A stretch of DNA of 64,000 bases from Alteromonas stellipolaris (GTDB taxonomy: Bacteria; Pseudomonadota; Gammaproteobacteria; Enterobacterales; Alteromonadaceae): contig NZ_CP013926.1 of assembly GCF_001562115.1 (NCBI RefSeq), positions 3,534,001 to 3,598,000 on the forward strand. Direction: 5' to 3'. A model generated the notes under the pieces. It made no database searches. It worked only from the letters and a program-made list of their open reading frames with translations, and was not told the origin of the DNA. Positions 24,140 through 55,840 of this stretch are shown here, piece by piece. Positions within the stretch are counted from its first letter, which is position 1; each line of letters starts with the position of its first letter. Made by a program: the position numbers and the translations under genes.

Positions 24140-25794
24140 TGTTGCGCTCCTATAGCTGCGGTTGTGTGGGTGTCTCTTTTTGAATCTATGTTTGAACCAG
24201 CAACTGGAGTTGCAGCTGATTGGTGGGTGTCCATGTTTGAATTTGTATGACTGTCCACGTAAGTGATTAGTTGTTCACTGTTTAAATTAGAGGTTTGAAG
24301 TGGGTGTCCATAACCGAATTGATAGCTGAATAAGGGGTGCGTTTGCCTGTTTAAGGTATGGGTGTCTTTAATTTGTGGCGCGTTTATTAGGCGGCCTAAT
24401 GTGTGGGTGTCCATATTTGAATCTAAATGGGTGTCTTTAGGTTTTTCTTTTACTAGCGGATAATACAGATAAGCGAGTTCGGCTAAATTTTTTGCTATGT
24501 CAACATGAAGTGCTAGCGCATCTAACTTTGCTGAAATGTGCGATATACGTGCACGCATTACGCCATCAAATGTGCCCTTATCGGCCATGTAAGCATTAAG
24601 CACGGATTCGGCTAAACTCTCTGACTGTGCAAGCAATGCGGTATCAAATAACTGCTGCCTAGCAATTAAGCTGACAAGCTGTGCTTCACTTGCTTCGGCA
24701 AGGGCTGCTAATCGTCTCACTTCTAGTCGTCGCTGTGTGGATGTCACCCCTAACCTTGCCGCTGATGCCGATACATTGGCATCTTGCCGCTTACTGCTAA
24801 ACAAAGGTAAATCAACTTGGACACCCACACTAATAAAGTCAGCTTGGCTCATGCCATTCTGGGCATCTTGCCGATATCCGTAGGCGGCTTCGAAAGCCCA
24901 CATAGGTTTGGTTTGCTCTTTCGCAAGACTCAATTTCTGTGTGGCGACTAACTCGTCTTTGGCAAGCAATTGCACAGAAGGGTGAGCGTCAATAATATTT
25001 AGTAAGTCACTTTCTTTAACCTGCCTAGCGAAGGATGTATTAAAAGGATATATGTCGTGATGATTGAGCGTTTCGGGCACAGAAAAACTAACTTCATTAG
25101 AGAAATCGAACCACCTCGACAACTTCGCCAACGCCACCGATGCGGTTTGCTGTTGCTGCAAAAGTGTATCTTCTAGGCGTAAGCGCTCAAGGCGTATTTG
25201 AATGATATCTTGTTGCTGCGTGCCACCCACACCACTTCGGTATGACGATTCAACCATTTCGAGCAGTTGCACTGTCGACTGCATCTCTTCACGCAATAAG
25301 GTTACGGTTTGTTCCGCTTGATACCACGCCAACCAATCCATCGACACTTCTCGCAACAACCACGCTCGCCTAGCCGCTCTTTTCACCGGTTCTTTTTGGG
25401 CTTGTTCAATAGCGATGGCTCGGGAAAGGCTGGCAGAATCTCCTCTTGGCATAGCTTGTCGAATACCCAGTTTCAACTGAGTCATGGGCTCTTGATTAAA
25501 TGAAAACCCATCTGTTGGCACGCTTTGCAGTGTAGTGGTGATAGTAGGGTTATCCCAGCTATCAGCCGCATCACTGTCGTGGTGATACGCAGCCTCTTCA
25601 AGTTTGCTGCCTTGAAAATAAACGTCTTGGTTGAGCGCGAGCTGTTGTGCCTCTTGAAGGCTAAGGGTAGTAGCGAAGGAAGGCGCTCCCACCAAAAATA
25701 TCAGTATTCCTAGCCAAGCGCGCGGAAGGTAACCAGTTCGAGCGCGACCTTGGATTAGGCAAGTAAAAATCATACCCAGATTAAAATTAAACAT
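24136..25794 (-). CDS. cusC: TolC-family outer membrane channel, CusC-like, with repeat-derived C-terminal tail
   Basis: This is the outer membrane duct of the Cus-type pump. The 552-residue protein has a signal peptide ending near SFATT (about residue 43), then two outer-membrane efflux protein repeats (LSLQEAQQLALNQD; SVGVQVDLPLFSSKRQDANVS). The recognisable TolC fold stops around residue 452. Residues 454-552 form an extra polar tail with the tripeptide DTH at 454, 461, 477, 522 and 541, DSH at 514 and two SNMDTH blocks. At DNA level the tail is built around copies of GTGGGTGTC(C/T), which is also dispersed outside genes. The tail has no known function and may be tolerated expansion. The start has no clear ribosome binding site; the ATG at 25773 is an alternative. 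Confidence 0.9.
   Translation of the reverse strand: MFNFNLGMIFTCLIQGRARTGYLPRAWLGILIFLVGAPSFATTLSLQEAQQLALNQDVYFQGSKLEEAAYHHDSDAADSWDNPTITTTLQSVPTDGFSFNQEPMTQLKLGIRQAMPRGDSASLSRAIAIEQAQKEPVKRAARRAWLLREVSMDWLAWYQAEQTVTLLREEMQSTVQLLEMVESSYRSGVGGTQQQDIIQIRLERLRLEDTLLQQQQTASVALAKLSRWFDFSNEVSFSVPETLNHHDIYPFNTSFARQVKESDLLNIIDAHPSVQLLAKDELVATQKLSLAKEQTKPMWAFEAAYGYRQDAQNGMSQADFISVGVQVDLPLFSSKRQDANVSASAARLGVTSTQRRLEVRRLAALAEASEAQLVSLIARQQLFDTALLAQSESLAESVLNAYMADKGTFDGVMRARISHISAKLDALALHVDIAKNLAELAYLYYPLVKEKPKDTHLDSNMDTHTLGRLINAPQIKDTHTLNRQTHPLFSYQFGYGHPLQTSNLNSEQLITYVDSHTNSNMDTHQSAATPVAGSNIDSKRDTHTTAAIGAQQ
24166..24439 (-). repeat. Cluster of GTGGGTGTC(C/T) repeats inside the 3' end of the cusC-like gene
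   Basis: Read on the plus strand, copies start at 24166, 24223, 24300 and 24403 (GTGGGTGTC) and at 24358 and 24428 (ATGGGTGTC). The copies at 24223 and 24403 match over 20 bases (GTGGGTGTCCATRTTTGAAT, one difference). The copies at 24358-24370 and 24427-24439 share 13 identical bases (ATGGGTGTCTTTA). Most copies encode DTH, but the copy at 24300 is read as G-H-P. The conserved object is therefore the DNA word, not the peptide. A further inverted copy lies at 24820-24828 in the same gene. Confidence 0.85.
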
Positions 25795-25874
25795 GCGAAA
25801 ACCACATTAATTCCCCTGTGCACCAAGGGAATAAAAAGAAAAACGTGGGTGCTATATGCGCCCGCCAGATACAA

Positions 25875-26435
25875 CTATCCTGCGAAAGCGAATTTAGGTG
25901 GGCGAAATTGGGTGTTGGGTATAGTGTGAGGGGCTTGGGAGTTTACAAAAAGCACCAAAGGAGCATGAGCAATAACCGCTACCGAGACTTCATTATTTAT
26001 TACTGCATAAACAGCGGCGCATACGCCTGCAGGGCATTGACACTGAACGTCGCAGCACGAATCAGGTGTGTCACCGTGCATGCTATGTTCCATTGATTTC
26101 ACAGCTTCTCTAGGAGCGCTTGAGACGCTATGAGTGGCGTGGTCATTTTTTGCGGTTGATTGAATGCTTGAAGGCGTAATTAAGTCGCTTGTCGAAGCGT
26201 GACTAGCTGAATGGCACCCACTAGCACTAAATTGCATCGTTTTATTGGCGAGACTTTCTGCTGATGAATTGTTCTCAGAATTTGCATCCATAGACATTAC
26301 ATCCATAGACATTAGCGCAGGCTTTGGCATAGCCGTTGGCATAGCCATTCCCGGCGACAATTGAGTCACCAAGGAAATAACCATTACCAATATTACGACA
26401 TAGCCGCGTCGGTGCTTTTTCAATTTATCTATCAT
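25875..26435 (-). CDS. Exported Met/His/Cys-rich protein, probable copper-binding (CopL/DUF2946-like)
   Basis: The 186-residue product has a basic N-terminus and a hydrophobic signal segment (about 12-31, YVVILVMVISLVTQLSPGMA). It is then rich in Met (MSMDVMSMD), His/Ser and a Cys cluster (SCCDVQCQCPAGVCA, about 131-145). It ends in a hydrophobic stretch and FRPPKFAFAG, which resembles the C-terminal end of DUF2946/CopL-type proteins found upstream of copper-resistance genes. It lies 80 bases upstream of the cusC-like gene on the same strand and is probably the first gene of the operon. Periplasmic metal capture or metal-dependent control of expression is inferred. I do not recognise a specific named family with certainty. 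Confidence 0.7.
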   Translation of the reverse strand: MIDKLKKHRRGYVVILVMVISLVTQLSPGMAMPTAMPKPALMSMDVMSMDANSENNSSAESLANKTMQFSASGCHSASHASTSDLITPSSIQSTAKNDHATHSVSSAPREAVKSMEHSMHGDTPDSCCDVQCQCPAGVCAAVYAVINNEVSVAVIAHAPLVLFVNSQAPHTIPNTQFRPPKFAFAG

Positions 26436-26474
26436 GCCTTAAAGCTTAACCGCATTTGTTATGGCTGTAAAACG

Positions 26475-27554
26475 CTAGAATTGTTGCGCATAGGTTTTTA
26501 GCATCATTGTCATGGTTGAAAATAAAGGGTTTGCTTTAGGTACTGCACATTCTTCGTTTTCATTTACCATGACCTTATTAAATTTCATATCATGTAACAT
26601 TGACGTATTCACCACAAGGTCGGCGTGGCACAACGCATAAGATGCATCGATAACAAAAAACGTATTCGGCCCTGCGCTATTTTCCATCAGGTTTTCTACA
26701 CCGTGAATAGGCGTGGTGGCATCAGCTTGAGAGTGCGCAGCAAAAAGAGGTACTTCAATACGCTTGCCGTCTTCGAAGTCGTCGCGGATTTTTTCGATAA
26801 TATCCATCAATTCCAACCCCGCAAAGCCTGCGACATTTGGATATTTAAAAGGGTTGGGACCGTGGGTGATATAACTACCATCCACAATTTTAGCAACCCA
26901 CTTGATACCCCAAATACGTGACATACTCTCGGCATTTTCTGAAAGTGCCAATGCACCAGAAAACAACATAAGTCCATCGATGTTGTCACTTGCATCTAGG
27001 TACTGATCCGCCGCCAATGCGCCACCAGTAGAAAATCCACCCACAATCAAAGTATCGCCCATATCATCAGCTAACGCGATAACCTCATCGACATGCGATT
27101 GCCAACGCTCCGCTAAGTCGCTGTCACTCATTGCACCATCATCATCTCGCAAACCATGTCCAGGTAATAGCGGAACAATAACGTCGAAACCTTCGTTAAA
27201 TAAAATATTGGCAATTTCTCGCATAAAAAATGGCGAGTCACTAAGCCCGTGTACTAACACGGCCACTTTCTTTGCAGGGGTATCGTGATGCAGCACATAG
27301 GGAGCATTACCTTCGTTGCGAAGTACGTTACCACATACGGTGTAGCGGTGCAGTTTAGAAGATTTACATCGCTGGGTTTCGCCCCACTCTTGCTTATAAA
27401 AATCAGTAAATCGCGTTAATGCGTCTTGTGTTTCGAGGGAGCTAGCCCCTGCAGCATTAGCGAATAATGTACTTATTAATGTACCTATTAGTGCACAGCA
27501 CCTTACGGCAAAAGGAAGTATGGATAATTTTGCGAAAGCAAACTTTGAGAGCAC
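26475..27554 (-). CDS. Exported alpha/beta hydrolase (carboxylesterase/monoacylglycerol lipase type)
   Basis: The 359-residue protein has a hydrophobic signal segment ending around ANAAGASS, then an alpha/beta-hydrolase core. VAVLVHGLSDSPFFM gives the oxyanion HG motif, VGGFSTGGALAADQYL the nucleophile elbow G-F-S-T-G, and a late SYALCHADLVV probably carries the catalytic His. Substrate is unknown; esters or lipids are likely. The frame opens at a TTG at 27596. The GTG at 27554 has a strong GGAG ribosome binding site seven bases away, and the upstream part overlaps the terminator of the preceding gene, so I chose GTG. It is probably transcribed alone. Confidence 0.8.
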   Translation of the reverse strand: MLSKFAFAKLSILPFAVRCCALIGTLISTLFANAAGASSLETQDALTRFTDFYKQEWGETQRCKSSKLHRYTVCGNVLRNEGNAPYVLHHDTPAKKVAVLVHGLSDSPFFMREIANILFNEGFDVIVPLLPGHGLRDDDGAMSDSDLAERWQSHVDEVIALADDMGDTLIVGGFSTGGALAADQYLDASDNIDGLMLFSGALALSENAESMSRIWGIKWVAKIVDGSYITHGPNPFKYPNVAGFAGLELMDIIEKIRDDFEDGKRIEVPLFAAHSQADATTPIHGVENLMENSAGPNTFFVIDASYALCHADLVVNTSMLHDMKFNKVMVNENEECAVPKANPLFSTMTMMLKTYAQQF

Positions 27555-27587
27555 GTATATTCTCCAAAAGGCATTACGTATGGTCAA

Positions 27588-27622
27588 TAATAACAAAATA
27601 AGGCCATTAAATAATGGCCTTA
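27588..27622 (-). terminator. Intrinsic terminator downstream of the peroxiredoxin gene
   Basis: An 11-bp perfect stem TAAGGCCATTA / TAATGGCCTTA (27599-27609 and 27612-27622) is followed on the minus strand by TTTTGTTATTATT. It lies about 100 bases after the peroxiredoxin stop and just before the esterase ribosome binding site. Confidence 0.75.
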
Positions 27623-27723
27623 CACTATTACAGTTTCACTGTGACGCTATGCTGTTTTAACTACCTACGGTTTAACAGCAAATGTTGTTCTAGTAAGCGC
27701 TTAGATACCGTCAATACTTGTAT

Positions 27724-28464
27724 TTAGCTAAAATACAATGCTAAGTCGTCTGACCCGCCAATATGCTTACCACCAATGAATACTTGAGGTACCGTGTCAC
27801 GTCCCGTCACTGCGCTAAGGCTGGTTAACGAGGCATCTTTGCCCAGTACAATCTCTTCGTAATCGTAACCTTTGTCGGTTAACAATGCTTTCGCTTTTGT
27901 ACAAAATGGGCAATTTGGCTTAGTGAATAGCGATACCGGAGCTTTTGTCTCAGCGCCTGGTGCAATATAAGCAAGCATAGTGTCGGCATCAGAAACCTCA
28001 AACGGGTCGCCAGGCACGTCAGGCTCAATAAACATTTTCTCTACAGTGCCATTTTTAACCAACATAGAGTAGCGCCAGCTGCGCTTTCCAAAACCTAAGT
28101 CAGCTTTGTCTACCAACATGCCCATGCCGTCAGTAAAATCACCATTACCATCTGGTATTACGGTTACATTTTCTGCTTCTTGATCGGCTGCCCATGCATT
28201 CATGACAAATGTATCGTTTACAGATATGCATAGAATGTCATCAACGCCATGCTGTTTAAATACTTTAGCAAGCGCGTTGTAGCGAGGTAAGTGCGTAGAA
28301 GAACATGTTGGCGTAAACGCGCCAGGAAGTGAAAAAACTACCACAGTCTTGTTACTAAACAATTCTTCAGTAGTTTTAGTTGCCCATGTCTCGCCTTCGC
28401 GAACAGGAATAGATACGGAAGGTACTGGTTGACCTTCTTTTGAAATAAAACGACTTTCTGACAT
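27724..28464 (-). CDS. Peroxiredoxin 5-glutaredoxin fusion (glutathione-dependent peroxidase)
   Basis: This hybrid peroxidase reduces hydroperoxides with glutathione; the Haemophilus homologue is called hyPrx5 or PGdx. The 246-residue protein has an N-terminal Prx5 domain (about 1-165) with peroxidatic Cys54 in [14 protein letters not shown] and the downstream [11 protein letters not shown] segment. The C-terminal glutaredoxin domain (about 175-246) has the redox site C185-P-F-C188 and [14 protein letters not shown]. Cytoplasmic, no signal peptide. No oxyR-like gene is next to it here. Confidence 0.95.
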
Positions 28465-28931
28465 AGAGTTCTCACTACGGGCAAATAAATGAAGTTGCTA
28501 GGATAGAGAAATCTAAGAAAAAAGAACAGCCTCGGTTCACCCAATCTCAACAAAGGTATAAATTAGCATGCGTAACCTCTAATATTAATGCGTATCAAAT
28601 CACATTAATACTTTTCAACACCATGTCTCTCGCTATATTCTTATTCTACGTTAGACATTAGTTTTAACTGGTCAGGGAACGATTCCGCCTTACGCTTCCG
28701 CCAAACCGAGCTCAAAAATAAGCATAACTGTTTTATTTAATGTGTAAATTCCGATGGGAACAGGTACTCTCTGCGCCGAATTTATACTTTAGTCTAATGC
28801 CTGATACGTTATTTCTTCGGGTTGTTCGCCATAATAGTAGTGATACGAATTGACTGCTGATAACGATATTAGTACTTCAGCTTTACTCATAAACTTCCGT
28901 CCTTCTTCTTTTTAAAAGGGAAGGCCAATAA
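28465..28931. other. Intergenic region between divergent peroxiredoxin and diguanylate cyclase genes
   Basis: This 467-base gap must carry the promoters of two divergent genes. The only coding candidate is a 33-codon minus-strand frame described separately. I see no tRNA, no strong hairpin and no repeat. Confidence 0.4.
28789..28890 (-). CDS. Possible small protein, 33 residues
   Basis: An ATG at 28890 preceded by GGACGGAAG opens a 33-codon frame ending at TAA. The product starts MSKAEVLISLSAVNSYHYYY and is acidic towards its end. There is no signal or membrane segment and I recognise no family. It overlaps the likely promoter region of the downstream cyclase on the opposite strand. It may be chance. 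Confidence 0.25.
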   Translation of the reverse strand: MSKAEVLISLSAVNSYHYYYGEQPEEITYQALD

Positions 28932-31100
28932 ATGCGTAGTCGTAAGGAAACTTCTATAATGCCCAGACAGTCGGCTCGGCGTTTTGCCACCAGCATTGTC
29001 ACCGTTTCGCTACTTTTTGCTCTAGTGGGTTTTTCTTTGCCTACAAAAGCAGTTTCTAATGCCCTTACTCAAACTGTTCAAGAATTCGTTCAAAGCGGTG
29101 CTTTCGAAGAAGCCGAGCGTCAAACCCTACTTGCTATTGAACAAGCTCACCAAAGCGGCGTATTGTCGGTAAGTACATTGTCGGCCAGTACATTCTTTGA
29201 GGTTGGAGTATTATTACAAAGTGCATCTCGTTTCAACGTTGCAATCGATGCACTGTACGTTGCGTTAGATGGCTTCACCCGCCACGGCCAACTTATTGAT
29301 ATGGCAAAAACCTTACACCATCTTGGTACCGCGCAACGCTTTCTAGGGAACTATGAGCAATCTATTGGCTACCTGCGACGTGCACAATCTATTGCGCAAA
29401 CACAAGGGATCCTCCCGTTAAATGCGACCATTCAAATGGAAATTGGTCTTGTCCAAAAAGAACAAGGCCAAGTACAAGCGGCACTCTACACATTAAAAAA
29501 AGCATTGGGTTTGTTTCGGGTACAACATGACGATAAAAGTACCGGCCAAGGTCTAGCGACTATTGGTGACATCTACGCCACATTAAATCAGTTTTCTGAG
29601 GCCAATACCTATTATCAAGATGCACTACAGATAGCGAAAACCAGCGATGATAAGCCGCTTACAGCACAAATATTGGGTAAGATTGGCGCTTTACTATTAC
29701 TTAAGGGCGATATTGAAGAAGCCTCAGAAGCGCTTAAGTACGCACTAGCCCTTTTAAAAGAGAATGGAGAATCGAGTGAAATCTCCACCACCCAGGCGTG
29801 GTTAGGCGAAGCGTTGGTAAAAACCGGCGACACAGAACAAGGCTTAATGCTACTTGAGGAGTCACTCGCGGTAGCGAAATCTACTGGTCAGCAAAAATTA
29901 CTCCAACAATCTCGCCTTGCACTGGCCAATGCGATGATGTCTTTGCAACAATTTGACGATGCACTGGCGTATGCTAAAAATGGCACTATTGAAGCAAGAC
30001 GGCGTGGTGATTTGCGCAGCCAGTTGAACTTCTTATCGATTCAAGTGAAAGCCTTAGCAGCCAAGGGAGAGTTTAAGCGCGCATTAGATATTCAGTCGGT
30101 GTTACAAAATATAAGAGAAGAAGTGCTAAGTTCGGGTAGCGAGGTTGCTATTGCACAGCTTCAGGCCGAAATAGAAATTGAGCGACAGGCACAGTCAATT
30201 CAAGTACTGCAGAAAACCAAACAACTCGCACTGGCTGAGGCCGAACAACTCAACCTGCGCACAACATTGTTTTGGAGCACGTTAATTGCCGGTTTGCTAA
30301 CACTATTTCTGATTTGGAGCAGATATACTCAGCGCCAGCAAACCATTAGGCTTCGCCGTGAAGTTAAGCAGAGAACGAAAGAGCTTGAACAAAAAAACTC
30401 GGAGCTACAAACAGCCTATAAAACCCTTGAGCAAGTCAGTCTTCATGATTCACTGACCGGTTTGTACAATCGGCACTACCTTGAATCTCAGTTGCCAGGT
30501 GAACTTAAGCGCAGCTCTCATGCAAATAAGCATCAGCAAGGCCACAACGAACGTAACCAAGACCTGCTTTGCTTCTTAATAGACATCGACCATTTCAAGC
30601 GTATTAATGACGAACATGGCCATTTAGCGGGCGATAAAGTATTAAGTCAGTTTGCCGATGTGCTTCGTGAAGTTTTCAGGCAAACTGATTTACTCATCCG
30701 CTGGGGCGGCGAGGAATTTTTGGTGATATGCCGTCACTCTATGCGAGACGATCTTCCTCAACTGGCTGAACGTTGCCGCGCCGCAGTGAGTGATAAAGTA
30801 TTTCATATTGACGATACTCGCTCACTTCGTGTTACCTGCAGTATTGGCTTTAGTATTCTTCCCCCTGTTGAACATGTGTCTTTCGAAGAAAGCTGGAAGA
30901 GCACCTTTTCAGTGGTTGATTATTGTTTATACGCCACCAAGATGTCTGGCCGTAATGGTTGGATTGGGGTTATTGATACTAATAAAGCCCTGATTGGCGA
31001 CGTGCAACAAACCCCGCTTGATAAGAAATTTCATTTTAAGCAGTCATACATTTCTACATCATTTAACACGCTGTCGAGCATAAATTGGCCCGATGAGTAG
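28932..31100 (+). CDS. TPR-containing membrane diguanylate cyclase (GGDEF)
   Basis: The 722-residue protein is likely a cyclic-di-GMP synthase with an extracytoplasmic sensor. It has an N-terminal signal/anchor segment (about 18-40) and an array of tetratricopeptide-like helices (about 45-400; for example LHHLGTAQRFLGNYEQSIGYL and GLATIGDIYATLNQFSEANTYY-type units). A coiled coil, a membrane helix (about 450-470, LFWSTLIAGLLTLFLIWS) and a second coiled coil follow. The C-terminal GGDEF domain has the active-site GGEEF at 592-596 and a product-inhibition RxxD (R583-Q-T-D586) five residues upstream. The GGEEF variant is catalytically competent in the family. Start at 28932 or at the ATG nine codons later; both have ribosome binding sites. 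The next gene follows after 11 bases. Confidence 0.92.
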   Translation: MRSRKETSIMPRQSARRFATSIVTVSLLFALVGFSLPTKAVSNALTQTVQEFVQSGAFEEAERQTLLAIEQAHQSGVLSVSTLSASTFFEVGVLLQSASRFNVAIDALYVALDGFTRHGQLIDMAKTLHHLGTAQRFLGNYEQSIGYLRRAQSIAQTQGILPLNATIQMEIGLVQKEQGQVQAALYTLKKALGLFRVQHDDKSTGQGLATIGDIYATLNQFSEANTYYQDALQIAKTSDDKPLTAQILGKIGALLLLKGDIEEASEALKYALALLKENGESSEISTTQAWLGEALVKTGDTEQGLMLLEESLAVAKSTGQQKLLQQSRLALANAMMSLQQFDDALAYAKNGTIEARRRGDLRSQLNFLSIQVKALAAKGEFKRALDIQSVLQNIREEVLSSGSEVAIAQLQAEIEIERQAQSIQVLQKTKQLALAEAEQLNLRTTLFWSTLIAGLLTLFLIWSRYTQRQQTIRLRREVKQRTKELEQKNSELQTAYKTLEQVSLHDSLTGLYNRHYLESQLPGELKRSSHANKHQQGHNERNQDLLCFLIDIDHFKRINDEHGHLAGDKVLSQFADVLREVFRQTDLLIRWGGEEFLVICRHSMRDDLPQLAERCRAAVSDKVFHIDDTRSLRVTCSIGFSILPPVEHVSFEESWKSTFSVVDYCLYATKMSGRNGWIGVIDTNKALIGDVQQTPLDKKFHFKQSYISTSFNTLSSINWPDE

Positions 31101-31111
31101 GAGCGTACATT

Positions 31112-44468: not shown

Positions 44469-44615
44469 TGGACACCCACCTTTCCAGTTTGCTGGACACC
44501 CACCTTTTCAACCCCCTTGTTACACTGATATTTTTTTGAGCAGTTTGCTGGACACCCACCTTTTCAACACCGTTGTTACACTGATATTTTTGGCTAACGC
44601 TAGCTGGACACTCAC
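44469..44615. repeat. 56-bp tandem repeat containing TGGACACCCACC
   Basis: TGGACACCCACC occurs at 44469, 44493 and 44549, and a decayed copy (TGGACACTCAC) at 44605. The last three are exactly 56 bases apart. The 56-base units share TTTTCAAC, CTTGTTACACTGATATTTT-like and GCTAGC/GTTTGC ends. They lie between the convergent ruvX and DUF2007 genes, in a 209-base gap that holds nothing else I recognise. The core is the reverse complement of the GTGGGTGTCC word found elsewhere in the window. Confidence 0.92.
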
Positions 44616-44982: not shown

Positions 44983-46095
44983 TTAGTCATCCATATCTAT
45001 CGAGACATTCGACAATGTGCCTAAGCTTGACCCATCGTTGGAATCTAGCTTAATCATTAGGCGCAAATCATTAGGAGAATCAGCGTGATGTAATGCTTGG
45101 TCTAAATCAATACTTCCCTCGCGATATAAGTCGTACAACGCCATATCAAAGCTTTGCATTCCTAACTCTTTGCCCTTTTTCATCGCTTCTTTCAAGCTAC
45201 CTATTTCATTACGTTGAATAAGATCGCTCACTAAGGGAGAGTTTAATAGAATTTCAATTGCCGCTACCCGTCCCTCACCGTCTTTGGTTGGAAGAAGCTG
45301 TTGCGCCACGATAGCTTTTATATTTTGGCTTAGGTCAAAACGTAACTTGTCGTGCTGATCTTTTGGCGCTAAGTGCATAATACGCTCAATTGCTTGGTTA
45401 GCATTGTTGGCATGGAGGGTTGCTACGCACAAATGACCCGTATCAGCGAACGACATGGCGTATTCCATTGTCTCCATTGAACGAATTTCACCAATAAGAA
45501 TGACGTCAGGCGCTTGTCTCAGCGAGCTTTTCAATGCATCGTCAAATGAGTGGGTGTCTATGCCTACTTCACGCTGAGTTATCACGCAAGATTTATGCTC
45601 GTGCACAAACTCAATAGGATCTTCAATAGTTAGAATATGTCCGAAAGAATTACTATTTCGGTGGCCGATTAAGGCCGCCAAAGAGGTCGATTTACCTGTA
45701 CCGGTACCTCCTACAAAAAGCACCAAGCCACGTTTTGACATGATGATATCTTTTAGCACCGTGGGTAAACCCAGGTCATCAACCTTAGGTATTTCGGTAA
45801 CAATACGACGTACCACCATCCCAGCTTGATCTCTTTGCCAAAACGCTGAACAACGAAAACGACCTAGGCCTTCTCGTACAATGGCAAAATTACATTCCTT
45901 GGTACTATGAAAAGCCTCTTTTTGCTTTTCATTCATAGCTTCATGAACAAGTGCTAATGCATCTTCGTCATTAAAAGAATTTTCCGAAATGGGGGTTAGC
46001 TTACCGTGCACTTTCGCGCTAACGGGAAAGCCCGCGGTAACGAATAAGTCAGAAGCAGATTTCTCTACCATTTTTTCTAAAAAGCTATCTAACAT
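44983..46095 (-). CDS. pilU: Type IV pilus retraction ATPase PilU
   Basis: PilU is the accessory hexameric ATPase that assists PilT in retracting type IV pili. The 370-residue protein has Walker A GGTGTGKSTSLAAL, the Asp box, Walker B-type PDVILIGEIRSMETMEYA and the His box TGHLCVATLHANNANQA, and ends with the PilU-type NDLRLMIKLDSND. The segment after REVGI reads DTHSF; its codons contain GTGGGTGTC on the plus strand (45550-45558). It follows pilT by nine bases. Confidence 0.95.
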   Translation of the reverse strand: MLDSFLEKMVEKSASDLFVTAGFPVSAKVHGKLTPISENSFNDEDALALVHEAMNEKQKEAFHSTKECNFAIVREGLGRFRCSAFWQRDQAGMVVRRIVTEIPKVDDLGLPTVLKDIIMSKRGLVLFVGGTGTGKSTSLAALIGHRNSNSFGHILTIEDPIEFVHEHKSCVITQREVGIDTHSFDDALKSSLRQAPDVILIGEIRSMETMEYAMSFADTGHLCVATLHANNANQAIERIMHLAPKDQHDKLRFDLSQNIKAIVAQQLLPTKDGEGRVAAIEILLNSPLVSDLIQRNEIGSLKEAMKKGKELGMQSFDMALYDLYREGSIDLDQALHHADSPNDLRLMIKLDSNDGSSLGTLSNVSIDMDD

Positions 46096-46104
46096 TACTC
46101 GTCC

Positions 46105-47148
46105 TTAAAAATTACTCATCGATTGCTTGTCTTTCGATTTAGCAGCGGCGTCTTCTTTAGAAATTGCACCTAGTGCCAACAAACGTTGTAAGCACTGATC
46201 CATAGTTTGCATACCCGTAGCTTGCCCCGTCTGAATAACGGAATACATTTGAGGTACTTTATCTTCACGAATAAGATTTCGAATTGCTGGAATACCTACC
46301 ATGATTTCATGCGCTGCTATTCGCCCTCCCCCCACTTTTTTCAGCAGGGTTTGAGAAATAACTGCCCTCAGTGATTCAGATAACATAGAGCGCACCATCG
46401 CTTTTTCTTCGGCAGGGAACACATCGATAATACGGTCTATGGTTTTAGGGGCAGAGTTAGTATGCAAGGTGCCAAAGACTAGATGCCCCGTTTCCGCAGC
46501 TGAAATGGCCAAGCGAATTGTTTCTAAATCACGTAGCTCACCCACTAATATCACGTCCGGATCTTCACGTAATGCTGAGCGAAGTGCGTTACTAAAAGAG
46601 TGGGTGTCTCGATGGACTTCTCGTTGATTTACTAAACTCAATTTATTTTCGTGTACAAACTCGATAGGATCTTCAATAGTGAGAATGTGCTCGCGCTTGT
46701 GCGAATTGATATGATCAACCATCGCGGCAAGGGTTGTACTCTTACCCGACCCCGTGGCGCCGGTGACTAGAACTATTCCGGTAGGTTGGTTGATTATTTC
46801 TTTGAATATTTCAGGTGCACCTAAATCATCAAGGGTAAGGACCGTGTTGGGGATAGTTCGAAGCACTGCTGCTGCACCGCGATTTTGTACAAAAGCATTT
46901 ACACGAAACCTCGACAAGCCACTAATTTCGAATGAGAAATCGGTTTCCAAGTTCTCTTCGTATTCTTTACGTTGCATGTCATTCATTATTTCATAAATAA
47001 GTGCATGGACTTGTTTATGATCTAATGCGGGTACATTAAGCTTACGCATTTCTCCGTCTACGCGGATAAGAGGTGGCAGACCTGCTGATAAGTGCAAATC
47101 TGACGCTTTATTTTTAACGCTGAAAGCCAAAAGTTCGGTAATATCCAC
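46105..47148 (-). CDS. pilT: Type IV pilus retraction ATPase PilT
   Basis: PilT is the main retraction motor of type IV pili, a cytoplasmic hexamer acting on the inner membrane platform. The 347-residue protein has ASDLHLSAGLPPLIRVDG, Walker A GATGSGKSTTLAAM, PDVILVGELRDLETIRLA, TGHLVFGTLHTNSAPKTIDR and the AIRNLIRE retraction motif. The start is GTG with a GAGGAG ribosome binding site. It is divergent from yggS with only 24 bases between starts, so the promoters must overlap coding sequence. It too reads DTHSF where P. aeruginosa PilT, from memory, reads DTLGF (word at 46600-46608). Confidence 0.97.
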   Translation of the reverse strand: MDITELLAFSVKNKASDLHLSAGLPPLIRVDGEMRKLNVPALDHKQVHALIYEIMNDMQRKEYEENLETDFSFEISGLSRFRVNAFVQNRGAAAVLRTIPNTVLTLDDLGAPEIFKEIINQPTGIVLVTGATGSGKSTTLAAMVDHINSHKREHILTIEDPIEFVHENKLSLVNQREVHRDTHSFSNALRSALREDPDVILVGELRDLETIRLAISAAETGHLVFGTLHTNSAPKTIDRIIDVFPAEEKAMVRSMLSESLRAVISQTLLKKVGGGRIAAHEIMVGIPAIRNLIREDKVPQMYSVIQTGQATGMQTMDQCLQRLLALGAISKEDAAAKSKDKQSMSNF

Positions 47149-48758: not shown

Positions 48759-49298
48759 ATGAATGCAACGGTTTTTCTGGTAGATACACTATTTGGTTTG
48801 TATTTAATGGTGGTTGTCTTACGCCTATGGTTGCAACTGGTTAGGGCTGATTTTTATAACCCTATGAGCCAGTTTATCGTAAAGGCCACGCACCCTCTTG
48901 TGGGGCCGTTGCGCAGATTAATTCCTTCGATTGGCCGCTTCGACACGGCTACCTTCGTGCTAGCGCTGGTTGTTGCGGCGTTGAAAATAATTACGCTTTC
49001 ACTGATGGTTGGTGGGAGTTTGAATCCTGTGGGCATCATAATCGTTGCGCTGATTGAAGTAGTAAAAGAAACCCTTTCTATCATGTTCTGGGTGTTAATT
49101 TTACGCGCGATTCTAAGTTGGGTATCGCAAGGCCAAACGCCTATCGACTACCTTCTTTATCAACTTACTGAGCCGTTCTTAGCCCCCATTAGAAAAGTTA
49201 TACCGCCATTAGGTGGTCTAGACCTATCAGTGCTGATTGCCATTATTGGGCTACAGTTTTTACAATTGCTACTTCAAGACACATTCAGGTTCTTTTAA
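48759..49298 (+). CDS. yggT: YggT family membrane protein
   Basis: The 179-residue protein has two copies of the YggT domain: MVVVLRLWLQLVRADFYNPM to PLRRLIPSIG, and FWVLILRAILSWVSQG to PIRKVIPPLGG. Each has two membrane helices ending in a conserved Pro-rich P-x-R-x-x-x-P motif. It is an inner membrane protein. The E. coli homologue is linked to osmotic tolerance, but its function is not settled. It follows proC by 21 bases. Confidence 0.95.
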   Translation: MNATVFLVDTLFGLYLMVVVLRLWLQLVRADFYNPMSQFIVKATHPLVGPLRRLIPSIGRFDTATFVLALVVAALKIITLSLMVGGSLNPVGIIIVALIEVVKETLSIMFWVLILRAILSWVSQGQTPIDYLLYQLTEPFLAPIRKVIPPLGGLDLSVLIAIIGLQFLQLLLQDTFRFF

Positions 49299-49320
49299 GC
49301 TGAATCTGCGGAGTGATAAG

Positions 49321-49761
49321 ATGAAAAAAATCAGTACATTACTTTTTGGTTTATTGGGTAGTTTATTACTTATTATAAGTAGTGCAGCACACGCCGAGCA
49401 AAAGCAACAACTAGGCGAATGGGATGTGCATTACATGGTAGTGAGTACTCCCTTTCTTACCCCGGAAGTTGCGGCCTCTTATGGCATAGTTCGTAGTAAG
49501 TTTAACGCCCTGGTCAATATTTCTGTCCTAGATGCCGTAACCGGAACCGCTCAACGCGTATCTGTTTCAGGTACTGCCAAAAACTTGATAGGCACCACTA
49601 AGACACTCACCTTTAAGAAGGTAGAAGAAGGCGATGCAATTTACTACCTAGCGGTGCTGCCTTTTAGAGACAGAGAAAACTACAGGTTTAGTATTGATGT
49701 TCAACGCGGAAATACTATGCAAACCTTGAATTTTAAACAAGAAATGTTTGTTGATAGTTAG
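49321..49761 (+). CDS. Exported DUF4426 protein
   Basis: The 146-residue protein has a signal peptide ending HAEQ (about residue 24), followed by a beta-rich domain with LGEWDVHYMVVSTPFLTPEVA and the terminal NYRFSIDVQRGN and FKQEMFVDS, typical of DUF4426. It is probably periplasmic, function unknown. The family commonly follows yggT in this order. A longer frame starts inside yggT, but the ATG at 49321 has a GGAGTG ribosome binding site and a proper signal peptide. Confidence 0.9.
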   Translation: MKKISTLLFGLLGSLLLIISSAAHAEQKQQLGEWDVHYMVVSTPFLTPEVAASYGIVRSKFNALVNISVLDAVTGTAQRVSVSGTAKNLIGTTKTLTFKKVEEGDAIYYLAVLPFRDRENYRFSIDVQRGNTMQTLNFKQEMFVDS

Positions 49762-49810
49762 GGTTTAAAGTAAGCGTGAAGCATATAAATGTGATTGTGT
49801 AAAAACCTCA

Positions 49811-49838
49811 AAGGGCGATTGAAAATTCGCCTTTTTTT
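49811..49838 (+). terminator. Intrinsic terminator after the DUF4426 gene
   Basis: GGGCGA and TTCGCC form a short GC stem around a loop TTGAAAA-type sequence, followed by seven T residues, 50 bases after the DUF4426 stop. It closes the yggS-proC-yggT-DUF4426 operon. Confidence 0.75.
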
Positions 49839-49844
49839 ATGCGC

Positions 49845-49881
49845 GCTAAAAGTTTGGACGCTAAAAGTTTGGACACCCACC
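49845..49881 (+). repeat. 15-bp direct duplication ending in TGGACACCCACC, upstream of the RAYT-like gene
   Basis: GCTAAAAGTTTGGAC occurs twice in tandem (49845-49859 and 49860-49874). The second copy continues into the dispersed word TGGACACCCACC (49870-49881). It lies between the DUF4426 terminator and the start of the IS200-like transposase gene, about 80 bases upstream. Confidence 0.85.
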
Positions 49882-49961
49882 CGAACTATCCTCTTGTTCA
49901 GTATATTTAACCTGAAATGTAGCTCAGTATCATTATCACTATTTTGAAATTGAGCTCCATT

Positions 49962-50900
49962 ATGCCAAGCCCTAGAAAGTCACTAATCTGTTTACAGAAC
50001 ACGCCCTACTATCACTGCGTATCTCGGTGTGTGAGGCGAGCATTTTTGTGTGGTAAAGACCGTTATTCGGGGAAGAGCTACGAGCATAGGCGCCAGTGGG
50101 TTGAAGATAGGCTCATAACGCTAACAAGCGTATTTTCAATTGATGTATGTGCTTATGCGGTAATGAGTAACCATACCCACTTGGTATTACATGTAGATAG
50201 AAACGAAGCGTTGTCGTGGACCACCGAGGAAGTATTGAGGCGTTGGCATTCACTACATAAGGGCACTGTATTAACCCAGCAATATATGCAGCCCGCACAG
50301 CGAGCTTCGCTTACAGAAGCTCAGATAACGACCATCATATCGACAGCAAATATATATAGACAACGGTTGTACGATATCAGTTGGTTTATGAGGTTACTGA
50401 ATGAGTTTATTGCTCGTGAAGCTAACAAGGAGGATGAGTGCACTGGACGTTTTTGGGAAGGAAGATTTAAATCGCAGGCTCTACTTGATGAAGCCGCATT
50501 GGTGGCATGTATGGCCTACGTAGATTTGAATCCACTACGCGTGGGACTTTCAAAAACGCCAGAAACATCTGAATTCACCAGCATTAAGCATCGAATAGAG
50601 GCAGTGCAACTTGGGGGGCAACCTAAGTTCCTTAAACCATTAGTGGGAAACGCTTCGCAAGCTTTGAAAGGGTTGCCTTTTAATTTAGCTGATTACTTAA
50701 CCTTGGTCGATGAAACTGCTAGGCAAATTAGCACAGGTAAATCCGGTTACGTACTCCACAATACCTCGCCAATTATACAACGCACCGGCTTATCGCAAAT
50801 AAACTGGAATAGTATGGTCGTTGGGATTGAAGATATCTTTTCAAACTCTATTGGCCTTTCAATTGCCCAGCGAAGGCTAGCCCTCTCTAGAGCGGGTTGA
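49962..50900 (+). CDS. IS200-like Y1 transposase, REP-associated tyrosine transposase (RAYT) type
   Basis: The 312-residue protein has the Y1/HUH nuclease fold: NTPYYHCVSRCVRRAFLCG near the start, the metal-binding HUH motif NHTHLVLHVD (H71, H73), and tyrosines Y132 and Y137 in IYRQRLYDISWF as candidate nucleophiles. The GRFWEGRFKSQALLDEAAL and YVDLNPLRVGL signatures follow. RAYTs are usually single-copy, lack classical insertion-sequence ends and are thought to mobilise short REP-type repeats. A frame opens at a TTG six codons upstream, but the ATG at 49962 is a better start. There is no accessory tnpB. The gene looks intact. Confidence 0.88.
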   Translation: MPSPRKSLICLQNTPYYHCVSRCVRRAFLCGKDRYSGKSYEHRRQWVEDRLITLTSVFSIDVCAYAVMSNHTHLVLHVDRNEALSWTTEEVLRRWHSLHKGTVLTQQYMQPAQRASLTEAQITTIISTANIYRQRLYDISWFMRLLNEFIAREANKEDECTGRFWEGRFKSQALLDEAALVACMAYVDLNPLRVGLSKTPETSEFTSIKHRIEAVQLGGQPKFLKPLVGNASQALKGLPFNLADYLTLVDETARQISTGKSGYVLHNTSPIIQRTGLSQINWNSMVVGIEDIFSNSIGLSIAQRRLALSRAG

Positions 50901-53269
<2,369 letters not shown>

Positions 53270-53284
53270 AGATTAGTATTTAAA

Positions 53285-53295
53285 GGTGGGTGTCT
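53285..53295 (+). repeat. Single copy of GGTGGGTGTCT after fadH
   Basis: One copy of the dispersed word lies 16 bases after the fadH stop, before the terminator palindrome. Confidence 0.8.
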
Positions 53296-53314
53296 CAGTT
53301 TAGCTTTATAAAAA

Positions 53315-53342
53315 AGAAGGGAAGCTAATTAGCTTCCCTTCT
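53315..53342. terminator. Bidirectional terminator between fadH and the VOC gene
   Basis: A perfect 28-base palindrome (AGAAGGGAAGCTAA and its complement) lies between two convergent genes and is flanked by A and T tracts. Confidence 0.85.
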
Positions 53343-53362
53343 CTATATTTCTTATATTTTTA

Positions 53363-53698
53363 CTAGAATTGGTCGAACATGATGGTGTTCCCATCAGGAT
53401 CTTTCACTACGCAATGCCCTGGCCCCTCTTCGCCTTTGACTGGCACATCTATTTCAATGCCTTTGTCCATTAAGCGCTGCTCGAGTTCGCGCACGTCAGC
53501 GGGGTTGAAGGTTAAAATATTGCCTTCAAACATGCCCTCGAACAAACCAATCATGGTTTGACCACTTTTCATGATAACCCACTTTTCTTCTACAGAGCCG
53601 CATGACGGCATTGCCTCAAAACCGAGTGTTTCATAAAACGTTTTCGAGATGGCAATATCACTGACCGCTAAACTTAACGAAAAAAGCCCAGGTTGCAC
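53363..53698 (-). CDS. VOC-fold (glyoxalase-like) protein
   Basis: The 111-residue protein has one vicinal-oxygen-chelate module pair: LFSLSLAVSDIAISKTFYETLGFE at the start and GHCVVKDPDGNTIMFDQF at the end. It is short and resembles the glyoxalase/bleomycin-resistance superfamily. Substrate unknown. The start is GTG with a GGAG ribosome binding site eight bases upstream. It stands alone. Confidence 0.88.
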   Translation of the reverse strand: MQPGLFSLSLAVSDIAISKTFYETLGFEAMPSCGSVEEKWVIMKSGQTMIGLFEGMFEGNILTFNPADVRELEQRLMDKGIEIDVPVKGEEGPGHCVVKDPDGNTIMFDQF

Positions 53699-53800
53699 TG
53701 TGTTCTCCTAAGAACCTAACAGAATGAATTACATACTGTAGATAAGTGCGCGAGCAAGATCACGGCAACTGGTCGCAAAACGTTCAATTTTTACGCTATA

Positions 53801-55336
53801 TTAGTGCTGCCACTCTTTCGTCAGCACAACCGCTTCATCGCCCTCTACCTTCACTTCTTTGCGCGACTCTTGGCCTTGGCTGTCTACCGCATAAAACTCG
53901 TAAACAGTTATGCCAGTGCCATGCTGAATACTCTCAATGATGCGTTTGGCTTCGAAATCAGGTGAAGATTGTTTTAAAGCCCCACTAACATTCTCAGGCA
54001 ACTGCGACCACACTAGGTCTCTTTGTACTTCTACAACTGTCCATTCGTCAGCCACTTGTAACATATCAAACTCAATTTCTTTGCCATCGACCAATACACC
54101 TTCAACATCAAGATAAGTCTTGCCATGCTTTAGCTCTTTTTCCACTTCATTTGCTGTGAAAGATGGCTCAATAGCTTTGATAGCAGTTAACGCATTGGCT
54201 GGAATGTCACTAACATTCATACTTACTTTTTGGTTTAGCGTAGCACCAATTTTGGCTTTTTCACCATGATTGGCTTTTGGCGCAACGCTCTCTCCTACTT
54301 CTAACCGCGTGAACGTTACACTGGCGTAATCACCATTAGCTTTATCTTCTGCCCAATTTCCTGTACCAAGACACGCAGGGTACCAAAAACCTGGGTCATC
54401 TTTGGTGCTACATTGGTTATAGGCTCCTGCTTTGAAATAGTTCCAATCCAACGTATACCCATAAGGGTGATCGTGCTTATCTAACTTACCGTAAGCATCT
54501 ACACCGTTAGCGAGGTTAATTTTGTATTCAACGGTTTCATGCCCCTCGGCTTCAAAGGTTAAATACATCACATCACCATGCACATTTACTACGTAGCTTA
54601 ATGCTTCGCCTAACGCTAGCCCAGCTTCACCAGGATCTTCTGGATTCGTCCATAAATTGCCCCATACCGGATAAGCAATATCTCTTCGATTAGCATCATC
54701 TTTCGGAAGATTACGTTCATAAGTCCAAAATACCGAGCCTTTTTCATGGTTAGGCCATTTTTTATAATAAATTTTAAGCGGTTCGTTGCCCCAACCAAAA
54801 CCTTGTACCTTTTTTTCCCATTTGCTGGCATGTATCTGACCAATAACCACGGAATAAGCGGGCGCTTTTTCAGGGTATTTAGCACGAAGAGCAACATGAT
54901 TCACTTTTAACGTAGCTTCCATCTTGCCGCCTATTCGTCCAAAACGTTTCGCAATAGGGTTACTAGCTACAGTGAAATTGTTCTTTGGCGACTTAGTTTT
55001 AATTCGTGTACTTTTTCCACGTAACATATGACGCAGTTCACTTCGCGTATTGCTTGAATTCGCGGTTGTCAGCGCTTTGTTTGGAGACGTGAATACCATA
55101 CCGCCATTTTCGTCTATGTAGAAAAAGTCAGGATGGGAAAAATCTTGGATATCTTTAACTGACACACTATCCGGCTTCCCATCATTATTTTCATCGGTCG
55201 GCAACGTAATGTTCCACTCACTCAAATCAAATTTATCAGCGGGAACGTCATCCGCAATAGCACCAACACTGAATACTGAAAGTAGGAGCAACATAGCCGC
55301 ATTGCTGCGATTTACTCGCTGAGGAAAAGCTCTCAT
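53801..55336 (-). CDS. PL7 alginate lyase with C-terminal PepSY-like repeats
   Basis: This exported polysaccharide lyase probably cleaves alginate by beta-elimination. The 511-residue protein has a signal peptide (cleavage near SVGAIA, about residue 28). The PL7 jelly-roll domain (about 33-350) carries all three signature motifs: R-S-E-L-R at 98-102, Q-I-H at 167-169 and YFKAGAYNQ at 300-308. The last 135 residues hold two related segments (about 376-430, SDIPANALTAIKAIEPSFTA; about 440-511, SQLPENVSGALKQSSPDFEA) that look like PepSY/PepSY-like repeats. I do not know this combination as a standard one. The frame extends 26 codons upstream, but the ATG at 55336 has an AGAGG ribosome binding site and a proper signal peptide. 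Confidence 0.9.
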   Translation of the reverse strand: MRAFPQRVNRSNAAMLLLLSVFSVGAIADDVPADKFDLSEWNITLPTDENNDGKPDSVSVKDIQDFSHPDFFYIDENGGMVFTSPNKALTTANSSNTRSELRHMLRGKSTRIKTKSPKNNFTVASNPIAKRFGRIGGKMEATLKVNHVALRAKYPEKAPAYSVVIGQIHASKWEKKVQGFGWGNEPLKIYYKKWPNHEKGSVFWTYERNLPKDDANRRDIAYPVWGNLWTNPEDPGEAGLALGEALSYVVNVHGDVMYLTFEAEGHETVEYKINLANGVDAYGKLDKHDHPYGYTLDWNYFKAGAYNQCSTKDDPGFWYPACLGTGNWAEDKANGDYASVTFTRLEVGESVAPKANHGEKAKIGATLNQKVSMNVSDIPANALTAIKAIEPSFTANEVEKELKHGKTYLDVEGVLVDGKEIEFDMLQVADEWTVVEVQRDLVWSQLPENVSGALKQSSPDFEAKRIIESIQHGTGITVYEFYAVDSQGQESRKEVKVEGDEAVVLTKEWQH

Positions 55337-55840
55337 AAAAAACCTCTGTAATAATATGTTAAGCGTACTTCTTATGCGGTACTTGCTTGATACATACCTC
55401 CCCCTTAAAAACAACCTATGGCATTACCAATAAACCATCAGGAGCGCTTTTAGGAACGGATTTAAAATACCAGAAAACATTACCAACCAAGAATTAATGT
55501 AATACCAATTTAACATTCAAACAATTTAATTACAAAATACTTTCATTTTATTCATTAGATTGTGGAGAACGATTGCTCAATATGTAGTGATGAAATGTAA
55601 AGGAGGGTTCGATATTGAAAATATGTGGGTGTCCATGAACGAAACACTGGCACGTAGGATGTCGATAGGTGGGTGTCCATGAACGAAACAATTTTGCTTA
55701 AAGTGTCTAATTACCCACTAATTGCGGCTTATCTGCAACTTAGTTGTTCGCGACAACCTTTATACTAGCTCGAACAAGCACTTATATAAGCCTTAATACT
55801 GACGTGAAAAAGTCACTTATGTTGAAACTAGGAGGGCGTG
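55337..55840. other. Intergenic region upstream of the alginate lyase and csaA-like genes
   Basis: This 504-base gap separates divergent genes. Near the lyase side, ATTACCAA-type words recur (around 55420, 55480 and 55500) and could be operator half-sites, but they are not regular. Near the other side lies the tandem repeat at 55625-55690. No gene is visible. Confidence 0.4.
55625..55690 (+). repeat. Two 22-bp identical direct repeats, 44 bp apart, starting GTGGGTGTCC
   Basis: GTGGGTGTCCATGAACGAAA plus two further bases occurs at 55625-55646 and again at 55669-55690. These are the longest identical copies of the dispersed word in the window. The copies in the cusC-like gene share the extended consensus GTGGGTGTCCATNNNYGAA. 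Confidence 0.92.

What the first reader, a model, noticed from the sequence alone, without database searches (positions are those of the whole stretch)
24166..55690. Dispersed DNA word GTGGGTGTC(C/T), at least 15 copies in 64 kb
Exact 9-mer copies on the plus strand start at 24166, 24223, 24300, 24403, 45550, 46600, 51807, 53286, 55625 and 55669. Reverse-complement copies start at 24820, 44471, 44495, 44551 and 49872. An arbitrary 9-mer is expected about 0.5 times in 64 kb on both strands with equal base use. Copies cluster locally (tandem units of 44 or 56 bp), favour gene 3' ends and intergenic gaps, and some share an extended consensus GTGGGTGTCCATNNNYGAA. The first 24 kb have none that I saw. 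This looks like a mobile or amplifying short element rather than a peptide motif. An uptake-type or chromosome-organising signal is the alternative.
Basis: partly seen in the sequence, partly recalled or inferred. Interest (0 to 1): 0.72.

Follow-up and report, generated by a model that had tools for sequence, protein, structure and literature searches.

The report
Transposase with locally spreading DNA words
The repeated DNA word is the calling card of a nearby single-strand-DNA transposase: copies bracket the transposase gene, pile up within about 30 thousand bases of it and even appear inside neighbouring genes, and the enzyme's own sequence predicts which version of the word is found beside it.

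Summary
Genome-wide the excess lies in four patches, the window being one. It fits TnpA-Y1 subclass 2.3 of Quentin 2018, for which that paper found no REP-like repeats. In 84 loci the family-wide word is RTGNNTGTCY. It brackets the gene in inverted, outward-facing orientation, marks the left end of shared homology in copies with unrelated flanks, thins out over ~30 kb, and its arrays differ between close relatives. NN is mostly GG, CC or AC by transposase clade, and follows one residue beside the W-E motif: R169 with G at N1 (51 of 54), H169 with C at N2 (43 of 44); 23 new proteins agree (9 of 9; 12 of 13). Words also accumulate inside neighbouring genes, matched to the local class, partly by in-place substitution (pilT/pilU) and partly by in-frame inserts. 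Best reading: a RAYT/REP-like system whose "REP" is a hairpinless ~10-nt word spread in cis by its transposase. Cleavage and strand transfer are inferred, not shown. Uptake-signal and genome-wide organiser readings fail.

The parts
49944..50900 (+). HUH/Y1 transposase gene, 318 aa (family-conserved start more likely the ATG at 49962); HUH N76-H-T-H79, catalytic-type Y192-V-D-L-N-P, G168-R169-F-W-E172
49872..49880 (-). left-end word GTGGGTGTC, outward facing, 72 bp before the ORF; present in window, L060 and L061
51115..51123 (+). right-end word ATGGGTGTC, outward facing, 215 bp after the stop codon; same in L060, TGAGTGTC in L061
51213..51220 (+). second oriented right-side word, variant TGGCTGTC
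24166..24435 (+). array of six TGGGTGTC (plus one TGACTGTC) inside the 3' part of the outer-membrane efflux ORF 24136-25794 (-); copy number differs among relatives, frame stays open
24820..24828 (-). single word in the same efflux ORF
44471..44559 (-). array of three words in the gap between ruvX and the pilT/pilU-like pair; Alteromonas sp. MMG017 (L060) has seven here, L061 two
45550..45558 (+). word antisense inside the 370-aa T2SSE ATPase gene (44983-46095, -), read D-T-H
46600..46608 (+). word antisense inside the paralogous 347-aa T2SSE ATPase gene (46105-47148, -), read D-T-H
51807..51815 (+). word inside the NADH:flavin oxidoreductase gene (51212-53269, +), also in L060 and L061
53286..53294 (+). 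intergenic word just after that gene, also in L060 and L061
55625..55677 (+). two-unit intergenic array (44-bp spacing); L060 has four words and about 131 bp more here

Best explanation
The word is the recognition sequence, and the end sequence, of an HUH/Y1 transposase of the TnpA-Y1 (RAYT-like) family. SHOWN: the gene is bracketed by inverted words; when related genes sit at unrelated sites, shared homology tends to stop at the words, clearly on the left and in a minority of tests on the right; words are dense near the gene and thin out over ~30 kb; arrays differ between close relatives; the word's two middle bases follow the transposase clade and residue 169. INFERRED: the enzyme binds the single-stranded word through the region around residue 169 and the W-E motif, cleaves at or near it with Y192, and joins strands. 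Because donor and target must both be single-stranded, probably at one replication fork, the reaction works mostly in cis. It leaves arrays of words with 20-60 bp spacing nearby and occasionally moves the whole word-gene-word unit. Copies inside genes arise as in-frame inserts and by in-place change of near-matching sequence; how the latter happens is open.
For: Four patches, one paralogue each. Density per 100 kb by distance from the four genes: 162, 59, 22, 12.5, 7.5 (20-30 kb), 0, 1.75, then 0.57 beyond 100 kb. Around 80 fetched relatives TGGGTGTC totals 248 against 24.5 expected; over those 80 plus 4 own loci TGNNTGTC against the reversed control is GG 308/45, CC 230/14, AC 151/38. Orientation: nearest top word within 1 kb is inverted upstream in 59 of 59 and direct downstream in 56 of 62 (74 of 84 loci used). 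With fixed flanks: left 73 of 76, right 64 of 76, wrong orientation 7 and 15; in a class-wide sample 18 and 19 of 24, wrong 1 and 3; shuffles 8-9%. Ends: in 23 pairs with unrelated flanks homology starts within -8..+20 bp of a left word in 34 of 44 tests (control 15%) and ends at a right word in 15 of 45 (control 10%). Specificity: R169 with N1=G 51 of 54, H169 with N2=C 43 of 44; new proteins 9 of 9 and 12 of 13. Class-matched words inside long ORFs: GG loci 62 GG, 8 CC, 9 AC; CC loci 29 CC, 4 GG, 9 AC. Beside the patch-c1 neighbour genes, 11 of 11 loci with the transposase in the fetched stretch hold GG words, 1 of 9 without it. Fold: top PDB match 4er8, a REP-associated transposase bound to a REP hairpin, E 1.5e-4, the only match at E <= 0.001. 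Turnover.
Against: No cleavage, binding or movement was observed. The right-hand end is ill defined: in 30 of 45 tests homology stops elsewhere, in 11 of 23 pairs 87-106 bp after the stop codon; the pairs are not independent. Upstream orientation bias is uneven by distance (9:8 at 1-2 kb, 4:6 at 4-5 kb, 2:8 at 6-7 kb). The fifth paralogue in this genome (C1:1944213) has no words; nor have L169 and L171 in the right orientation, and L160 has one in the wrong one. In 44 of 80 loci the single most enriched 8-mer was some other sequence. The phylogenetically independent test of residue 169 has only 6 supported contrasts (4.5 agree, 0.1 disagree, 1.4 uninformative on average; median p 0.125), the column was picked after scanning all columns, and L110 is an exception. 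No hairpin was found at the words or beside them, unlike the REP and IS200/IS605 substrates described in the papers read. Most copies inside genes are conserved between close relatives, and in-place gain of words in genes is not predicted by ordinary transposition.
Confidence: 0.8

Rival explanations
1. The words are binding sites of the transposase (or a partner) used for regulation or local chromosome handling, kept and multiplied by selection rather than moved by the enzyme.
For: Words inside genes spelled by codon choice at conserved sites in word-rich genomes; weak A/T-rich flanks with weak complementarity; the gene stays at one site across related genomes.
Against: Homology of copies at unrelated sites starts at the left word; arrays differ by indels between close relatives; density falls with distance; paralogues within one genus have different words.
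Confidence: 0.15
2. Ordinary tandem-repeat slippage and gene conversion amplify an inherited word without the transposase.
For: Some arrays are clean tandem units (33 bp at C1:1711341, 28 bp at C1:1693875). Change of copy number in an existing array needs no transposase.
Against: Does not explain concentration around transposases in four separate patches, outward orientation on both sides, class matching inside genes or the link with residue 169.
Confidence: 0.04
3. DNA uptake signal or genome-wide organising signal.
For: Short non-palindromic word in many copies on both strands.
Against: 87 copies genome-wide against 39 for the reversed word, 57 of 86 on the main contig within 30 kb of four genes; loci of the same genus hold TGCCTGTC or TGACTGTC beside other paralogues.
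Confidence: 0.01

Closest known systems
REP / RAYT (TnpA-REP) systems, REPtrons
   Same: HUH/Y1 transposase gene bracketed by inverted short repeats that also occur without the gene; the gene stays put; each enzyme has its own repeat type; fold nearest to TnpA-REP 4er8. Concentration of REPs near the gene is reported for two Marinomonas sp. MWYL1 REPtrons (PMC8266576, section 10, read).
   Different: REPs are 20-40 bp palindromic repeats (PMC3733652 abstract) with a GT[AG]G foot (PMC6006769), usually spread genome-wide; here an 8-10 nt word without detectable hairpin, local, several words per genus, and copies inside genes.
TnpA-Y1 subclass 2.3 (Quentin et al. 2018, PMC6006769)
   Same: Length 315-326 aa in this genome against a median of 325, WE motif, YVDLNP, long C-terminus, prevalent in Alteromonadales, several diverged copies per genome.
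   Different: The paper states that neither automatic nor manual search found REP-like sequences for 2.1 and 2.3; here an associated repeat is found. The middle HUH residue is T in 63 of 107 and Y in 20 of 107; the paper's consensus is NHYH.
TIRYT / TIRtrons (PMC3733652)
   Same: RAYT-like genes flanked by inverted repeats instead of REPs, some repeats multiplied in the genome (passages seen).
   Different: Those repeats are described as long, and some share GGGGWSAS. Alteromonas and Marinomonas do not occur in the text; Shewanella was seen only in connection with GTAG repeats. No 8-nt word, residue link or local decay in the passages seen.
IS200/IS605 insertion sequences
   Same: HUH/Y1 chemistry and short recognition and guide sequences at the ends (passages).
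   Different: Subterminal hairpins not found here, own copies are diverged, and solo words are multiplied.

Membership tests
TnpA-Y1 class 2 (HUH, single Tyr) | HuH motif and Y---NP | tested here: met
   H77 and H79 in 107 of 107; Y192, N196, P197 in 107 of 107
TnpA-Y1 subclass 2.3 | about 325 aa, WE, YVDLNP, Alteromonadales | tested here: met
   own four paralogues 315-326 aa; W171 106 of 107, E172 105 of 107, YVDLNP nearly invariant; many relatives are Alteromonadales. Not placed on the paper's own tree.
TnpA-Y1 subclass 2.3 | inserts between beta-1/alpha-A and beta-3/alpha-C, long C-terminus | tested here: inconclusive
   model has extra helices 86-141 between strand 77-84 and helix 145-163 and a long C-terminal part; the beta-1/alpha-A insert was not checked
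TnpA-Y1 subclass 2.3 | HUH written NHYH | tested here: inconclusive
   NHTH in the window; middle residue T 63, Y 20, L 13, V 5, F 3 of 107
RAYT (TnpA-REP) | NCBI family NF047646 over its cut-off | tested here: not met
   39.5 bits against cut-off 80; PF01797 19.2 bits against 23 for the window protein, 23.2 for the patch-c3 paralogue, below for the other two
RAYT (TnpA-REP) | fold of TnpA-REP | tested here: met
   4er8 first, E 1.5e-4, TM 0.63 on target length, 0.35 on query length
REP element | hairpin with GT[AG]G foot | tested here: not met
   mean folding z -0.28 on 90 of 155 isolated sites, -0.51 on 90 of 215 clustered sites; weak complementarity only
IS200/IS605 | subterminal hairpins at both ends | tested here: not met
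   mean z between -0.24 and -0.58 for inner and outer 60 nt at 70 left and 62 right ends, both strands
IS200/IS605 or RAYT | single-strand cleavage and strand transfer | not testable with these tools
   needs enzyme

The most novel reading that the evidence does not exclude
The transposase system writes its own 8-base word into neighbouring DNA, including protein-coding genes, by converting near-matching sites in place, not only by inserting units: a cis-limited sequence-writing activity whose letter choice is set by one recognition residue (R169 for G-first words, H169 for [A/C/T]C words).
Probability: 0.25. Interest if true: 0.92.

Novelty: new variant of a known kind. Interest (0 to 1): 0.78.

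Why it matters
It would give an orphan subclass of HUH/Y1 proteins its DNA partner. Relatives at E <= 0.001 are in 169 of 369 sampled gammaproteobacterial genomes, though many of those are remote hits to other Y1 proteins. It offers a one-residue, testable recognition code for a single-strand transposase, natural variation to solve the rest of that code, and a system in which a resident transposase reshapes nearby genes: in-frame inserts in a carboxylase, variable tails on an efflux protein, respelled pilT/pilU codons.

Tried and rejected
A Y1_Tnp family search in the genome found one gene (C1:3456753) with no TGGGTGTC in the 20 kb around it, which first argued against a RAYT; the partners were found by noticing a ~315-aa ORF in each patch. 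Hairpin searches at and beside the words gave nothing beyond weak complementarity between positions -1 and 8 and a few i+j=8 pairs; related sequences inflate those z values. The literature search for the word itself returned 949 papers, none of the 20 listed relevant by title. I took the pilT/pilU copies for coding coincidences in a notebook entry; one search showed they go with word-rich genomes. A later note uses the names pilT and pilU loosely; the 347-aa product is the more PilT-like by length (recalled). VIA-align was not available, so residue 169 was placed beside the W-E motif by sequence, not by superposition. The Bertels 2017 paper (recalled) was not held; PMC2817692, PMC7285500 and PMC8049555 were only searched for terms.

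Rows dropped before counts: 6 of 84 loci with internal stops in the protein tree; 10 of 84 without a word counted at least 3 times; 8 of 84 with short flanks and 4 of 28 of the class sample; L145 left out and L168 without ORF; 2 of 55 loci without ORF and 30 of 53 proteins already seen; 11 of 107 rows without R/H or a G/C second base; 16 of 84 loci not of class GG, CC or AC; one copy on the small contig left out of the distance counts. Circularity: the words used to label a locus were read within 300-700 bp of the gene, so the under-1-kb figure and the intergenic figures are partly circular; the 1-10 kb figures and the counts inside long ORFs are much less so. Mixed loci were reduced to their commonest word for the residue test. 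The 23 validation proteins come partly from the same clades as the first set. Only 30 of 59 genomes had loci in the pilT/pilU comparison.
Full report
WHAT WAS CHECKED. The 8-base core TGGGTGTC has 20 copies against 1.13 in shuffles. The window lies in a 4.65-Mb contig of a 4.9-Mb genome. The nearest named relative by transposase is Alteromonas sp. MMG017 (93% protein identity); the genome itself is unnamed, so Alteromonas is my inference.

WHERE THE WORD IS. Genome-wide there are 87 copies of the 9-mer against 39 for the reversed control. Of these, 56 lie in four patches: C1 1.690-1.711 Mb (16), 2.176-2.197 Mb (10), 2.829-2.864 Mb (15) and the window (15). Counts of all 8-mers in these patches put TGGGTGTC or its complement first in all four; 64 kb of control sequence held one copy.

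WHAT EACH PATCH SHARES. Each patch has one ORF of 315-326 aa, mutually 56-73% identical: window 49944-50900, C1 1692416-1693396, 2179344-2180291 and 2856398-2857348. Pfam's Y1_Tnp is below cut-off in three and just over in one, and NCBI's REP-associated tyrosine transposase model matches the window protein at half its cut-off. The AlphaFold model (mean pLDDT 81) has as first PDB match 4er8, the REP-associated transposase bound to its REP hairpin (E 1.5e-4, the only match at E <= 0.001). Length, WE motif and YVDLNP agree with TnpA-Y1 subclass 2.3 of Quentin et al. (PMC6006769; abstract, sections 12, 22 and 31, a table row and passages seen). That paper found no REP-like sequences for subclass 2.3. 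A fifth, more distant paralogue (51%) at C1:1944213 has no words.

THE WORD BELONGS TO THE TRANSPOSASE. Eighty loci with up to 10 kb of flank on each side (585 relatives confirmed, the best 80 kept) were scanned for any enriched 8-mer. By my count of the listing, the single most enriched one is TGNNTGTC or a shift of it in 36 of 80: GACAGGCA in 11, GACACCCA in 10, the rest shifts and variants; in the other 44 it is some other sequence. With the four own loci added, totals against the reversed control are GG 308/45, CC 230/14, AC 151/38, GC 113/52; the other twelve are lower. The nearest top word within 1 kb is inverted upstream in 59 of 59 loci and direct downstream in 56 of 62, typically 60-150 bp before the start and 210-330 bp after the stop. 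Downstream the bias holds to about 6 kb (24:4, 22:3, 10:1, 21:8, 8:1 per kb); upstream it is uneven (9:8, 22:5, 15:5, 4:6, 19:6, then 2:8). Opposite sign on the two sides means that replication direction alone cannot cause it. With fixed windows (300 bp up, 450 bp down): left 73 of 76, right 64 of 76, both 61; wrong orientation 7 and 15. In a class-wide sample: 18, 19 and 15 of 24, wrong 1 and 3. Shuffled flanks: 8% and 9%. Around the neighbour genes of patch c1, 11 of 11 loci with the transposase in the fetched stretch hold GG words and 1 of 9 without it (the stretches are short, so a transposase further off would be missed).

THE WORDS AS ENDS. In 23 pairs of loci with related genes but unrelated flanks, homology begins within -8 to +20 bp of a left word's outer edge in 34 of 44 tests (control 15%). 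On the right it ends at a word in 15 of 45 (control 10%); in 11 of 23 pairs it stops 87-106 bp after the stop codon. Pairs share loci and are not independent. In the cleanest case (L125/L133) homology runs from -70 to +326 with words at -64 and +317. So the left end is well supported and the right end only in part.

RECOGNITION. The two middle bases follow the tree of the transposases. Of all columns, residue 169 (numbering of the window ORF), in G-R/H-F-W-E, ranks first in each of six rankings, tied in one. R169 goes with N1=G in 51 of 54 and H169 with N2=C in 43 of 44. It lies beside the W-E motif and just before the strand 173-180 of the model. In E. coli TnpA-REP, residues around beta-4 contact the GTAG foot (PMC8266576, section 26 read; PMC6006769). 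On a tree built without this column there are at least 7 residue changes; 6 supported independent contrasts agree on average in 4.5, disagree in 0.1 and are silent in 1.4, median p 0.125, so the phylogenetic test alone is not significant. Of 23 proteins fetched later and not seen before, R169 had N1=G in 9 of 9 and H169 had N2=C in its commonest word in 12 of 13; one Y169 had AG and TC. In six members of one H169 clade the left word is AC and the right CC, so the two ends can differ.

LOCAL SPREAD. In the own genome the density of the 9-mer per 100 kb falls with distance from the four genes: 162 (under 1 kb), 59, 22, 12.5, 7.5 (20-30 kb), 0, 1.75, and 0.57 beyond 100 kb; five of the six copies at 20-30 kb belong to the efflux ORF of the window. 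Over 83 loci, words outside ORFs exceed permuted words 135-fold under 1 kb (partly circular, see Tried and rejected), 38-fold at 1-5 kb and 12-fold at 5-10 kb. Words between genes match the local class: GG loci 160 GG, 1 CC, 2 AC; CC loci 115 CC, 0 GG, 35 AC; AC loci 67 AC, 28 CC, 5 GG. Concentration of REPs near the gene has a precedent in two Marinomonas REPtrons (PMC8266576, section 10).

TURNOVER. The transposase stays put: window, L060 and L061 share the site, patch c2 aligns over 20 kb with L063 and L064, and patch c1 is at the same site in several genomes of the genus. The arrays around it do not. In the ruvX-pilT/U gap the window has three TGGGTGTC, L060 seven and L061 two; at 55.6 kb L060 has two more words and about 131 bp more. 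In L060 8 of 18 words lie close to a gap of 10 or more against 4 of 173 permuted words; seen from the window it is 0 of 11 against 6 of 180, and in patch c2 0-2 of 11-12, where most words are conserved. In the efflux ORF, TGGGTGTC numbers 6, 4, 2, 4 and 1, and all TGNNTGTC forms 7, 5, 2, 6 and 1, in window, L196, L197, L198 and L199; the reading frame stays open in all five. L196 and L197 are 93% identical to the window there, L199 84%, L198 79%.

WORDS INSIDE GENES. In ORFs of at least 250 aa with trimmed ends, GG loci hold 19.5 GG words per 100 kb against 2.5 CC and 2.8 AC; CC loci 14.5 CC against 2.0 GG and 4.5 AC; AC loci 6.8 AC, 4.8 CC and 2.0 GG. Next to patch c1 a carboxylase carries about 24 extra residues in frame with two words in five closely related genomes (L175-L179); loci without the transposase lack it, and so do five other lineages that have the transposase. 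In pilT/pilU, 11 of 12 sites in six related genomes with words in the gap read GTGGGTGTCT; a further genome with gap words (L278) has it at one of two; of 46 sites in 23 genomes without gap words one reads GTGGGTGTCT and two more contain TGGGTGTC. The six genomes share ancestry, and gene conversion between the two paralogues is possible, so this is two to three independent events at most. How such substitutions arise is not shown.

STRUCTURE OF THE WORD. No hairpin: mean folding z -0.28 (90 isolated sites) and -0.51 (90 clustered), and -0.24 to -0.58 for 60-nt segments at both ends. There is weak complementarity between -1 and 8 (54% against 39% expected) and some i+j=8 pairs, which related sequences could produce.

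MECHANISM AND NOVELTY. The most likely account is a RAYT-like enzyme whose 'REP' is a hairpinless word and whose action is mostly in cis. Binding, cleavage and strand transfer are inferred from the family. I file it as a new variant of a known kind. That the word-transposase link is not in print rests in an open-access library and on the statement in PMC6006769; subscription papers and supplements were not searched.

Noticed in passing
G000 C1:1711341-1711534 (L041): Clean 33-bp tandem array of the word with five near-identical units, 18 kb from the patch-c1 transposase, next to an array on the other strand.
   Followed up: partly
G000 C1:1689069-1691180: Carboxylase gene with about 24 extra in-frame residues holding two words; seen in five related genomes, absent in loci without the neighbouring transposase and in five other lineages with it.
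   Followed up: yes
window 24136-25794: Efflux outer-membrane protein with a C-terminal tail whose length and D-T-H count vary among relatives with the word array.
   Followed up: yes
G000 C1:1944213-1945109 (L144): Fifth paralogue of the transposase (51%), with Y at residue 169 and no words nearby; perhaps a decayed or differently targeted copy.
   Followed up: partly
G000 C1:3456753-3457082 (L009, L047): One Y1_Tnp gene (239-aa frame) over the Pfam cut-off, with no TGGGTGTC in the 20-kb stretch around it.
   Followed up: partly
L067, L069, L071, L078, L082, L129: Left end word AC, right end word CC in six members of one clade (L068 and L070 are mixed): the two ends can differ.
   Followed up: partly
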